This document shows, one piece after another, positions 2,803 to 30,026 of a DNA stretch of 64,000 bases. This DNA is from Actinoallomurus soli (lineage in GTDB: Bacteria; Actinomycetota; Actinomycetes; Streptosporangiales; Streptosporangiaceae). Positions within the stretch are counted from its first letter, which is position 1. Every line of letters begins with the position of its first letter. The stretch lies in the NCBI RefSeq assembly GCF_024055715.1, contig NZ_JAMXMV010000001.1, positions 434,001-498,000 of the forward strand. Direction: 5' to 3'. The position numbers were made by a program, and so were the translations under genes. A model generated the notes under the pieces. That model saw only the letters and a list, made by a program, of their open reading frames with translations. It had not been told where the DNA came from and did no database searches.

Positions 2803-4533
<1,731 letters not shown>

Positions 4534-27434: not shown

Positions 27435-27665
27435 CCGGCAACCGTACTGAGCCGTTGAGGAGACGCGAACCGATTATCGGCGCCGGAGCGGTTCCCCTGG
27501 CGTTTCCCGCCGCCTATCGGCGGTGGACGCCGGTGACCACCGAAGGGCGGTACGGTACGACTCGGGCCGCGACTGGCGCTGAGGTGGAGCACCACCGGGG
27601 AGCGGCCCGCACACACGTCGGGTCGTGCGCCTGGGCCGAGTCACCTCGACCGTTCGGGAGCAGCC

Positions 27666-28325
27666 ATGACCCAGCCGCAGACCGCCCGTCTCATGGACGG
27701 CGCCGGCCCGGCCCGCCGCATCGTCGAGCGCAGCGCCGCCAGGGCCGCGCGGATCACCCGGGAGGCCGGCACGCCGCCGTGCCTGGCGACCGTGCTGGTC
27801 GGCGACGACCCCGCGTCCGTGACGTACGTCCGCATGAAGCGCGCCCGGTGCGAGAAGGCCGGCATCGCCTCGCGGCACGTGGGATTGCCGGCCACGACCA
27901 CCACGGCCGAACTGGTCGACACCGTCACCGCCCTGTCACAGGACCCGGGAGTGCACGGCATCCTGCTGCAGCACCCGGCCGGGCCGCACATCGACGAGCG
28001 CGCCGCGTTCGAGGCCATCGCGCCGCACAAGGACGTCGACGGTCTCACACTGCAGTCGTTCGGCGCGATGAGCTTCGGGCTGCCGGGCTTCGCGTCCTGC
28101 ACCCCTGGCGGCATCATGCGGCTGCTGGAGGAGTACGACGTCGAACTCGCCGGACGGCACGCCGTCGTGGTCGGCCGCAGCGCCATCCTCGGCAGGCCGG
28201 TCGGGATGATGCTGCTGGCCGGGGACGCCACGGTCACGTACTGCCACTCGCGTACCGTCGGCCTGCCCTCGATCGTGCGGCAGGCCGACATCCTGGTCGC
28301 GGCCGTCGGGCGGCCGCGGTTCATC
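27666..28325 (+). pseudogene. folD: folD 5' fragment, interrupted by tnpB element
   Basis: First 220 codons of a FolD-type methylenetetrahydrofolate dehydrogenase/cyclohydrolase. The catalytic Tyr and Lys (TYVRMK), Gln in LLQHPAG, Asp in KDVDGLTL and the nucleotide loop GRSAILGRPVG are all present, so the enzyme was complete before the break. GGGAG precedes the ATG. Similarity stops at ...VGRPRFI (28325), exactly where a mobile element begins; the reading frame runs on into the element to 28646. The remaining part is at 29660-29876. This probably was a second folD copy, since a sole copy would be hard to lose. Confidence 0.9.
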
Positions 28326-28343
28326 GGCTTCTCGGCGTGGAGA

Positions 28344-28363
28344 CCCCGGCCTTCAGGCCGGGG
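28344..28363 (+). repeat. Left-end hairpin of the element
   Basis: CCCCGGCC, loop TTCA, GGCCGGGG: a perfect 8-4-8 hairpin about 20 bases inside the left end. It matches the right-end hairpin in shape and loop and is the expected recognition structure for a Y1 transposase. Confidence 0.8.
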
Positions 28364-28416
28364 AGGAAACGCCGTTCCCTCCTCGGAGTGTCGGCGGTGG
28401 TGGTTAGGGTGCGGGC

Positions 28417-29616
28417 ATGCGGTTCCGGCTTGCGCCCACGCCCGCCCAGGAGCAGGCGCTGCTGGAGCACTGCTCGCACGCCCGTTATGTGTGGAATCTC
28501 GCGGTGGAGCAGCATCGGCATTGGCGGCCGGGCCGGCAGAGTGCGCCGGGTTATGCGGAGCAGTCGCGTCAGTTGACCGAGGCGAGGAAGGCGTTTGCGT
28601 GGCTGGGGGCGGGGTCGCAGACGGTGCAGCAGCAGGCGTTGCGTGACTTCGCCCAGGCCATGAGCAACTTCTTCGCCGGGACGCACCGGCGGCCGACCTG
28701 GCGCAAGGCGGGCGTGCATGAGGGGTTCCGGATCGTCGGGCAGCGCGGCAAGGCCTGGGATGTGCGCCGGTTGTCCCGCAAGGTCGGGCAGGTGTGGATT
28801 CCGAAGGTCGGCTGGGTGCGGTTCCGCTGGTCCCGGCAGGTGTCTGGCATCGCGAAGTCGTTTCGGGTGAGGCGGGATCGGGCGGGGCGCTGGCATGTGT
28901 GCTTCGCGGTGATCCCGCCGCCCGTCGAGGGGCCGGGTACGGGTGAGGTCGTCGGCGTTGATCGTGGGGTGGCGGTCTCGGCGGCCTTGTCCACCGGCGA
29001 GCGGCTGTCGGTGCCGGGTCTGCGTGCCACCGAGGCCAGCCGTATGCGGCGGTTGCAGCGCCGGCTGGCGTGCGCGGAGCGCGGGTCGAACCGCCGCGCC
29101 CGGGTCAAGGCCGTGATCGCCCGGTTGAAGGCGCGTGAGAGCGATCGGCGTAAGGACTGGGTGGAGCAGACCTCCACTGATCTGGCCCGCCGGTTCGATC
29201 TGATCGGGGTCGAGGACCTGAAGGTCAAGAACATGGTGCGGTCCGCGCGCGGCACGACCGCCGCGCCGGGCACGAACGTGCGCGCCAAGGCCGGGCTGAA
29301 TCGCTCCATCCACGCCGCCGGTTGGGGTCTGCTCGTGACCCGTCTGGAGCAGAAGGCGCCGGGCCGGGTGGAGAAGGTCAATCCCGCGTACACGTCTCAG
29401 ACCTGTCATGCCTGTGGGCACTGCGCTGCGGAGAGCCGCGAGAGCCAAGCGGTTTTTCGTTGTCGCGCCTGCGGGCATGTCGATCACGCGGATGTGAACG
29501 CGGCCAAGAACATCAGAGACATCGCCGTCGGGCGGACGGTGACAGCGCGGGGAGCCCTCCAGCCGTTGGGCGGGGCTGTGAACCGCGAACCTCAACCTGT
29601 TCTCTCCTGCGGGTAG
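28417..29616 (+). CDS. tnpB: TnpB RNA-guided nuclease
   Basis: TnpB protein of 399 residues, the RNA-guided endonuclease of IS200/IS605 elements and ancestor of Cas12. The RuvC catalytic residues are all present: Asp182 (GVDRG), Glu266 (GVEDLKV) and Asp359 ([10 protein letters not shown]). The zinc finger is complete with Cys330, Cys333, Cys349 and Cys352. The N-terminal domain begins at [20 protein letters not shown] without truncation. TAGGGT ends six bases before the ATG, so the message may start leaderless. All features suggest an active nuclease. Its usual role is to cut the empty donor site and so help the element persist. Confidence 0.93.
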
Positions 29617-29659
29617 GGATCGGGTTGGAATCCCCCGCCTTCAGGCGGGGGAGGGCGTC
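29500..29659 (+). ncRNA. Predicted omega/reRNA of TnpB
   Basis: In TnpB systems the guide RNA is made from the 3' end of tnpB through the right end of the element, with the guide read from the DNA just outside. By that rule the scaffold would lie in about 29500-29659, including the right-end hairpin, and the guide would begin with AACCGGGGCGAGGACGTCAC from folD. The boundaries are inferred from the family and cannot be proven from sequence alone. Confidence 0.4.
29632..29651 (+). repeat. Right-end hairpin of the element
   Basis: CCCCCGCC, loop TTCA, GGCGGGGG: a perfect 8-4-8 hairpin a few bases inside the right end, sharing the loop and the GGxGGGGxGAGG outline with the left hairpin. Confidence 0.8.
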
Positions 29660-29876
29660 AACCGGGGCGAGGACGTCACCCGGAGCCGTCGTGATCGACG
29701 CCGGGTCCAATCCCGGCAACGTCGGGGACGTGGACTTCGAGACCGCCCGGACCCGCGCGAGCCTCATCACCCCCGTGCCCGGCGGCGTCGGCCCCATGAC
29801 GATCGCCGTCCTACTCGAGCAGACCGTCGACGCGGCGGCCCGCCAACTCGGCGTGGACCTCGGCGAAGCGGGGTGA
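29660..29876 (+). pseudogene. folD: folD 3' fragment with frameshift
   Basis: C-terminal 70 or so codons of the interrupted folD, ending with the typical [20 protein letters not shown] and [16 protein letters not shown]. Read from the repaired junction the frame begins NRGEDVT, but to continue into [17 protein letters not shown] two bases are missing (or one is extra) near 29676-29683, in the run CACCCGG. So even precise excision of the element would not restore the gene unless the shift is a sequencing error. Confidence 0.85.
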
Positions 29877-30026
29877 GCGCACGCCTGCGACGCTGAGGCT
29901 GGTCGTCGTGGTGTTGCCGTCCGTTATGCGTAGGTTGTTGAATCTTGGGGCGATCGCGCGACTCCCGGTGGGCATCTTCCGCACGGCGGCGCTAACCTCG
30001 ATCGACACTCGAACACAGGGGGAGAC

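What the first reader, a model, noticed from the sequence alone, without database searches (positions are those of the whole stretch)
28318..29876. tnpB-only element with readable ends and empty site inside folD
Seen: folD similarity breaks at 28325 and resumes at 29660; deleting 1334 bp gives FINRGEDV across the joint. Both ends carry 8-4-8 hairpins with the same TTCA loop, there is no target duplication, and the nuclease has all RuvC and zinc-finger residues. Known: in IS200/IS605 elements the 5' flank is the target and TAM, and the 3' flank supplies the guide. Inference: TAM is TTCAT (28320-28324) and the guide reads into folD, so this TnpB should recognise an intact copy of this folD site. 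The lack of tnpA makes it a passenger kept or moved in trans.
Basis: partly seen in the sequence, partly recalled or inferred. Interest (0 to 1): 0.75.

Follow-up and report, generated by a model that had tools for sequence, protein, structure and literature searches.

The report
TnpB-only jumping element inside folD
A small mobile DNA element carrying only an RNA-guided cutting enzyme sits inside a folate-metabolism gene of a soil actinobacterium; it is of a known kind, but comparing it with its relatives suggests that one amino acid of the enzyme, a short guide in the element's own DNA and its four-letter landing site have changed together.

Summary
Against intact folD genes the element is 28325-29661 (1337 bp), ends in TCAA, and sits directly 3' of TCAT without duplication. 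The joint reads RFIRGEDV, not FINRGEDV. folD also has a separate 2-bp deletion. The element is a tnpB-only (IS1341-type) IS200/IS605 member. Its ends follow the IS608 base-pairing code, its catalytic residues are present, and its 3' RNA shows covariation (24 of 35 pairs). The motif is TCAT; the base before it is free. No Y1 transposase gene was found in the genome. Three sister insertions, two of them only 227 and 64 bp, also have clean empty sites. New: 61 sister copies use TCAT or TCAC. The last base co-varies with the left DNA guide (46 of 52) and matches TnpB residue 46 in every copy where both could be read: Tyr with TCAT (24 of 24, window included), Phe with TCAC (32 of 32). Residue 46 aligns with ISDra2 Tyr52, the known contact of that base. 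The rule fails in some distant TnpBs and rests on four independent changes. Verdict: a new member of a known kind, with a testable co-evolution of nuclease, motif and transposon end.

The parts
27666..28324 (+). 5' part of interrupted folD, ending in the target/TAM
   Evidence: Pfam THF_DHG_CYH and THF_DHG_CYH_C; ungapped alignment to A. spadix folD, 613 of 659 identical
28321..28324 (+). Left cleavage/target site C_L = predicted TAM, TCAT
   Evidence: TCAT or TCAC at this place in sister copies; folD relatives contiguous after it; base before it not conserved
28325..29661 (+). Whole tnpB-only IS200/IS605 (IS1341-type) element, 1337 bp
   Evidence: Empty-site comparison and end alignment of sister copies
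28340..28343 (+). Left DNA guide G_L = GAGA, 5' of the left hairpin
   Evidence: Position and pairing rule as in IS608 (PMC5934647 passages); last base co-varies with the last base of the target
28344..28363 (+). Left-end hairpin CCCCGGCC-TTCA-GGCCGGGG
   Evidence: Sequence; aligned in related copies
28417..29616 (+). tnpB, 399 aa; Tyr46 predicted contact of TAM base -1; RuvC Asp182, Glu266, Asp359; zinc-finger Cys330, 333, 349, 352
   Evidence: Pfam, NCBIfam guided_TnpB 264 bits over a cut-off of 100, alignment to ISDra2 TnpB 8bf8, motif positions
29522..29661 (+). Predicted omegaRNA/reRNA scaffold (helices 29522-29542, 29546-29587, 29593-29627, 29632-29651), overlapping the 3' end of tnpB
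   Evidence: 24 of 35 pairs with changes on both sides, 0 of 500 shuffles as high
29628..29631 (+). Right DNA guide G_R = GAAT
   Evidence: GAAT in 55 of 62 right ends scored, AAAT 3, CAAT 1, none found 3; identical to IS608 G_R (PMC5934647)
29632..29651 (+). Right-end hairpin CCCCCGCC-TTCA-GGCGGGGG
   Evidence: Sequence and covariation
29658..29661 (+). Right cleavage site C_R = TCAA, last four bases of the element
   Evidence: TCAA in 61 of 62 right ends, CCAA in one (the search pattern itself required T/C-CAA, but the columns align); folD resumes at 29662
29662..29681 (+). Predicted guide segment read from folD (16-20 nt)
   Evidence: Adjacent to C_R; guide length by analogy with ISDra2 (PMC8612924 passages); inference
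29662..29876 (+). 3' part of folD, with a 2-bp deletion between 29678 and 29679 relative to relatives
   Evidence: Pfam match of the 3' part

Best explanation
This is a tnpB-only IS200/IS605 element of the IS1341 kind that landed in folD. Shown here: it lies exactly 3' of TCAT, duplicates nothing, and its ends carry the IS608 set of cleavage and guide tetranucleotides (TCAT with GAGA on the left, TCAA with GAAT on the right). Its 3' end has the conserved fold expected of a TnpB guide RNA. Inferred: it was moved as single-stranded DNA by a Y1 transposase supplied in trans by another element that is not in this genome now. Its own TnpB, loaded with the 3'-end RNA and a folD-derived guide, would cut TCAT-flanked empty folD alleles and so retain or re-copy the element. 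Inferred from family comparison: TnpB residue 46 reads the last base of the motif (Tyr for TCAT, Phe for TCAC), and the element's left DNA guide changes with it, so nuclease, transposon end and target evolve as one unit.
For: Empty site contiguous in A. spadix and in 67 of 80 relatives. Three other insertions in the genome (1331, 227 and 64 bp; lengths printed) have contiguous empty sites in at least one other genome of the genus each. Right end TCAA in 61 and GAAT in 55 of 62. Left guide versus target: 46 of 52 obey T:A or C:G, two of them with a gapped guide in the alignment (L176, L188). Four target changes on the element tree, three coinciding with the matching guide change, branch-level Fisher p 0.0013. 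Residue 46: Phe in 32 of 32 TCAC copies, Tyr in 23 of 23 readable TCAT sister copies, plus the window. For L166, L172, L177 and L181 the residue was read before the target; four of four agreed. The residue aligns with ISDra2 Y52, which touches the -1 base and whose change to Ala abolishes cleavage (PMC10097598 passages). RNA covariation. Genomes that I counted as carriers have a Y1 match more often than the rest: 37 of 60 versus 88 of 237, p 0.0007. Ten of 34 Y1-bearing loci examined share the GAAT-hairpin-TCAA right-end plan.
Against: No Y1 match in this genome or in 23 of the 60 carriers, so trans movement is not demonstrated. None of the nine Y1 elements whose left end I could read uses TCAT or TCAC: eight use CTAC with guide AGTG and one CTAT with GGTG (by eye). 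The Y1 association is not corrected for relatedness or genome size. The residue-46 rule rests on four independent changes, and the four prospective cases are related variants. The left-guide column had only the second-highest mutual information with the target; another left-end column without a known role was higher. One more distant copy breaks the residue rule (L267, Phe with TCAA), and two TnpBs at 43-47% identity do not follow it (L303 Tyr with TGAC, L300 Pro with TGAC). Six of 52 copies break the left-guide pairing. No RNA or protein data. The single-sequence structure model was poor, mean pLDDT 45, and was not used.
Confidence: 0.8

Rival explanations
1. It is a dead remnant: an IS605 element that lost tnpA by deletion and merely decays in a pseudogene, with no retained function.
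For: folD is frameshifted besides the insertion; no Y1 match in the genome; fragments such as C55:4824-5150 and the left end at C59 (L022) lie elsewhere in the genome.
Against: The 92 bp between left end and tnpB hold only the left-end structure. The sister left ends that could be aligned are built the same way, with no room for a tnpA. The tnpB frame and catalytic residues are intact, and residue 46, target and left guide have stayed matched in most copies, which a decaying lineage would lose.
Confidence: 0.1
2. The match of residue 46, left guide and target base is shared ancestry only, and residue 46 has no causal role in target choice.
For: Other columns also separate the two groups partly (residues 112, 68, 76), and an unrelated left-end column reaches higher mutual information with the target than the guide does. 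Only four changes. Distant TnpBs do not follow the rule.
Against: Of the columns scanned, residue 46 is the only one that separates the groups without exception once L188 is read by tblastn, and it differs in each of the four lineages with a changed target, while residues 68 and 112 do not. It is the column aligned to the structurally known -1 contact. Four prospective predictions were right, though in related copies.
Confidence: 0.25
3. The element is moved by a non-Y1 enzyme, such as an IS607-type serine recombinase, rather than by a Y1 transposase in trans.
For: No Y1 match in the genome and none in 23 of 60 carriers.
Against: Ends have subterminal hairpins and the IS608 guide and cleavage tetranucleotides, whereas a passage of PMC9956272 (cut off at its start) describes ends bound by serine recombinases as lacking subterminal repeats. 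NCBIfam scores IS200_TnpB 184 against IS607_TnpB 85 bits, both below cut-off. No serine-recombinase search was made.
Confidence: 0.06
4. The 2-bp deletion in folD, after guide nucleotide 17, is a repair scar of TnpB cutting (15-21 bp from the TAM in ISDra2), either of an earlier empty allele or of the element's own right flank through weak recognition of TCAA.
For: Against L028 it is the only indel in 659 bp of 5' and about 200 bp of 3' folD sequence before the divergent C-terminus, and it lies inside the cleavage interval reported for ISDra2.
Against: One case, noticed after the fact. None of three other insertions in the genome shows an indel there. A dead gene is free to collect frameshifts.
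Confidence: 0.12

Closest known systems
IS1341-type (tnpB-only) elements of the IS200/IS605 family
   Same: Single tnpB, hairpins at the ends of most, 10 of 18 being 1252-1393 bp in PMC9956272 (passages); whether they are autonomous or decayed is called unclear there
   Different: Actinobacterial lineage with TCAT/TCAC targets; ends shown here to keep the IS608 guide code; 227- and 64-bp derivatives in the same genome
IS608 (Helicobacter pylori)
   Same: C_R TCAA and G_R GAAT identical; left guide pairs with target by the same positions (PMC5934647 passages; pairing of the fourth guide base is my reading)
   Different: IS608 has tnpA, target TTAC and guide AAAG; here no tnpA, target TCAT and guide GAGA
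ISDra2 and its TnpB (Deinococcus radiodurans; 8bf8, 8exa, 8h1j)
   Same: TnpB family, RuvC and zinc-finger residues, Tyr at the -1 TAM contact, TAM ending in T
   Different: Pentanucleotide TTGAT, tnpA present; phmmer E 8e-31
Y1-bearing IS605 elements of the same taxonomic family (L215, L216, L218, L219, L220, L222, L227, L234)
   Same: Right end GAAT-hairpin-TCAA, IS608 pairing rule; L216, L218, L219, L220 and L227 have left hairpins much like this one
   Different: Carry tnpA, target CTAC with guide AGTG, TnpB only 30-39% identical (L222 over a partial match)

Membership tests
IS200/IS605, IS1341-type | Insertion 3' of a short motif kept at the left, no target duplication | tested here: met
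   folD relatives and three further insertions
IS200/IS605, IS1341-type | Subterminal hairpins at both ends with 5' guide tetranucleotides that pair with the cleavage sites | tested here: met
   rule taken from PMC5934647
IS200/IS605, IS1341-type | tnpB only, no tnpA or remnant inside the element | tested here: met
   92 bp before tnpB hold only the left end; no Y1 match in the genome
IS200/IS605, IS1341-type | Mobilisation by a Y1 transposase | not testable with these tools
   Co-occurrence only: 37 of 60 against 88 of 237
RNA-guided TnpB nuclease | RuvC triad and C4 zinc finger | tested here: met
   Alignment to 8bf8: Asp182, Glu266, Asp359; Cys330, 333, 349, 352. D191 of ISDra2 is in PMC8612924; its partners E278 and D361 are recalled
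RNA-guided TnpB nuclease | Structured RNA at the right end | tested here: met
   Covariation; expression not tested
RNA-guided TnpB nuclease | TAM-dependent cutting guided by the flank | not testable with these tools
   Needs biochemistry
IS607 | Ends without subterminal palindromes | tested here: not met
   Hairpins at both ends; description of IS607 ends from a partly cut passage of PMC9956272
IS607 | Serine recombinase gene | not tested
   None in the element by its ORFs; the genome was not searched for one
Nuclease-dead TnpB-like repressor (TldR; name and definition recalled) | Lost RuvC residues | tested here: not met
   All three acidic residues present
Rfam RNA families | Match above gathering score | tested here: not met
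   Only sub-threshold HgcC and CRISPR-DR9 matches in 27600-30000

The most novel reading that the evidence does not exclude
In this actinobacterial TnpB lineage a single conservative difference, Tyr46 or Phe46, sets TAM recognition to TCAT or TCAC. Switches are mostly matched by an A/G change in the transposon's own left DNA guide, so that the RNA-guided nuclease and the DNA-guided transposition of an element without a transposase gene stay aimed at the same motif. Neighbouring Y1 elements whose hairpins are alike but whose guides differ could serve these passengers in trans without imposing their own target.
Probability: 0.5. Interest if true: 0.7.

Novelty: new member of a known kind. Interest (0 to 1): 0.5.

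Why it matters
TnpB and Y1 transposases are known to share one motif (PMC8612924 passages), but I know of no account of how the two keep in step when the motif changes (recall; searches listed none that I saw). This family gives four natural switches with a one-residue candidate on the protein side and a one-base partner on the DNA side, testable in a standard TAM assay. It also bears on whether tnpB-only IS1341 elements are decayed or living passengers, which PMC9956272 calls unclear. For the folD finding itself the meaning is ordinary: a mobile element interrupted one of two folD genes of the genome.

Tried and rejected
Rejected: pentanucleotide TAM TTCAT (base before TCAN is free); right end at 29659; the genome's second folD as the guide's target (best 20-nt match in that 3.5-kb locus has 3 mismatches and no TCAT before it); TCAT plus folD guide elsewhere in the genome (18-nt pattern, up to 3 mismatches: the only 1-mismatch place listed is the element's own right end; the listing was truncated); a Y1 element in the genus with the same ends (pattern scan of L209-L212 found no convincing one). 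Phylum-wide search by DNA, 396 genomes, gave only two long copies outside this genome (L266, L267). Phage collection search gave nothing at 60% identity or above. Viral-contig hits L305 and L306 and plasmid copies L297, L301, L302 and L304 had no left end I could read, so they were not scored; the other viral-contig hits were not examined. Single-sequence structure model poor and unused.

Rows left out: 5 of 56 left ends were dropped (truncated or misaligned). Six of the 61 copies never entered that alignment: L166, L172, L177 and L181 carry an extra gene before tnpB and were read later by eye (with L170), and L156 and L195 lie at contig ends. In one search, 5 of 61 copies had no readable target and one had a stop at codon 46. 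The column scan used 49 of 52 proteins (three broken frames). For the RNA alignment I gave 48 of the 60 fetched copies, leaving 12 out without a fixed criterion. Ten of 60 listed plasmid hits, of 3518 records, were fetched. Carriers were picked by eye from a capped listing (two candidates scored per genome). One search set residue labels from the 1:1 match and adds no independent evidence. L170's last target base had been printed before its residue was read, so it is not counted as prospective.

Full report
Setting. The window lies at G000:C11:434001-498000 of a 9.42 Mb genome in 60 contigs, 98% complete. The closest intact folD found in named genomes is from Actinoallomurus spadix (L028, 92% protein identity over the 5' part), so the host is probably an Actinoallomurus or near it (inference).

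Boundaries. I compared the two folD flanks separately with 80 related loci. In L028 the base equivalent to window 28324 is at 3659 and the base equivalent to 29662 at 3660; 67 of 80 relatives show the same contiguity, 11 a gap of 2 and 2 an overlap of 3. The element is therefore 28325-29661, 1337 bp, and the protein around the joint reads RFIRGEDV as in A. spadix. In addition the 3' part of folD lacks two bases after position 17 of the flank compared with L028, L082 and L035; the 5' part has no indel in 659 bp against these three. So folD is broken twice. A second folD with an open frame lies at G000:C44:316041-316517.

Sisters. In the same genome there is a full copy (84%, C55), a 227-bp copy on C5 that keeps the left end and the last 140 bp or so, and a 64-bp copy on C2 whose first 18 bases equal the window's left end and which runs straight into the right hairpin; C59 holds a left end only (lengths). 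The C55 insertion has contiguous empty sites in two other genomes of the genus, the C5 and C2 insertions in one each where both flanks aligned; in a second genome each only the right flank aligned well. The empty sites read TCAC, TCAC, TCAT and TCGG where the copies have TCAT. In the taxonomic family, 226 of 297 genomes have some match to the element, many of them partial. I fetched 60 further copies and analysed them with the C55 copy; all 61 gave a tnpB alignment.

Ends. The right end is TCAA in 61 of 62 (61 copies and the window) and the tetranucleotide before the right hairpin is GAAT in 55 of 62 (the pattern used required T/C-CAA). These are C_R and G_R of IS608 (figure legend in PMC5934647, passages seen). 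At the left, the target is TCAT or TCAC and the tetranucleotide before the hairpin is mostly GAnA or GAnG. By the IS608 geometry (A+16 with T-3 and A+17 with T-4 in PMC5934647; pairing of the fourth guide base with -1 is my reading) three pairs are canonical. In one search, 51 of 56 rows were usable and the table T/C against A/not-A was 20, 4, 2, 25; the guide column came second in mutual information with the target, after a left-end column of no known role. In one search, 46 of 52 obeyed the rule (two with gapped guides), and on a tree of the element bodies three of four target changes fall on a branch with the matching guide change (p 0.0013 by branches). The target motif has four bases: the base before it is G 25, T 17, C 10, A 2 in 54 copies.

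Nuclease. The protein is a guided TnpB (NCBIfam 264 bits over a cut-off of 100) with Pfam HTH_OrfB_IS605, OrfB_IS605 and Cas12f1-like_TNB domains. Asp182, Glu266 and Asp359 align with ISDra2 catalytic positions (of these only D191 was seen in a paper, the other two are recalled). I asked which protein column follows the last target base. In 49 proteins residue 46 stood out: Tyr in 23 TCAT, Phe in 25 and Ala in 1 of 26 TCAC; the Ala row (L188) is a broken frame and reads Phe by tblastn. Over all 61 copies tblastn gave Phe in 32 of 32 TCAC and Tyr in 23 of 23 readable TCAT copies, with one TCAT copy (L185) having a stop at that codon and five copies without a readable target; the window itself is Tyr and TCAT. 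For L166, L172, L177 and L181 the residue was known before the target was read; all four agreed, but they are related variants. Residue 46 aligns with Tyr52 of ISDra2 TnpB. In the ISDra2 structure Tyr52 and Ser56 touch the -1 dT of the TAM and Y52A abolishes cleavage (PMC10097598, passages). A full-text search for TnpB with 'TAM specificity' or Y52 listed three papers; the passages I saw in two of them do not mention a Tyr/Phe effect on the TAM, and the third was not opened. That is all I can say about print.

Outside the family sample. L266, L295, L296 and L298 (one genome and three plasmid copies, 62-65% identity) have Tyr with TCAT. L299 (50%) has Phe with a target read as CCAC and guide GGTG. 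L267 has Phe with TCAA, against the rule. L300 (Pro) and L303 (Tyr) have TGAC with guide CAAG: the DNA pairing holds there but the residue rule does not (left ends read by eye). So the DNA code looks general, while the residue rule is a property of this lineage.

RNA. The last 180 bp of 49 of the 61 copies, of the window, and the last 140 bp of the C5 short copy were aligned (51 sequences). A structure with 35 pairs, partly from RNAalifold and with one helix added by eye, has 93.6% of cells paired, 24 pairs with changes on both sides, 0 of 500 shuffles as high, and 39-46% paired when slid. The first helix lies inside the tnpB reading frame. The added helix was chosen on the same alignment, which favours it.

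Helper. No Y1_Tnp match in this genome; 2 of 8 genomes of the genus have one. In the family, 37 of 60 genomes that I counted by eye as carrying a long copy have a Y1 match, against 88 of the other 237 (Fisher p 0.0007), uncorrected for relatedness and genome size. Ten of 34 Y1 loci examined show a GAAT-hairpin-TCAA right end (a few extra pattern hits looked like chance). Nine of their left ends were readable: eight CTAC with AGTG and one CTAT with GGTG. Since the target is set by the transposon's own guide in IS608 (PMC5934647), such a transposase could in principle move TCAT elements; this is inference.

Verdict. The finding is a genuine insertion of a known kind with slightly corrected ends. 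The added value is the matched change of target base, DNA guide base and TnpB residue 46, which rests on four independent changes and needs a TAM assay.

Noticed in passing
window 29678/29679: 2-bp deletion in the 3' part of folD after guide nucleotide 17, inside the 15-21 bp cleavage interval known for ISDra2; not present at three other insertions of the genome.
   Followed up: partly
L021 (G000:C2, near 213485) and L020 (G000:C5, about 170009-170235): 64-bp and 227-bp derivatives of the element with contiguous empty sites in another genome of the genus; the 227-bp one keeps the guide-RNA part without tnpB, so it could supply a second guide in trans.
   Followed up: partly
L166, L172, L177, L181; also L299: Variant elements with a divergent reading frame between left end and tnpB whose start reads like a ribbon-helix-helix (CopG-like) protein (my reading, no family search); all five have Phe46.
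   Followed up: no
54 copies: 17 of 54 insertions have an antisense Shine-Dalgarno-like motif 4-16 nt after the right end, against 87 of 730 TCAC/TCAT sites in the window: some copies seem to sit between ribosome site and start codon of a neighbouring gene.
   Followed up: partly
window 28261-28377 and 29552-29674: Sub-threshold matches of Rfam HgcC (RF00062) at both ends (29.3 and 19 bits, gathering 50; E 0.0003 and 0.18). HgcC RNAs might themselves be ends of IS200/IS605-like elements, or this may only reflect GC-rich hairpins.
   Followed up: no
L300 (Mycobacterium branderi plasmid): IS605 element with tnpA directly before a tnpB 46-47% identical to the window's; left end read as TGAC with guide CAAG.
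   Followed up: partly
L185: TCAT copy in which the codon for residue 46 is a stop.
   Followed up: no
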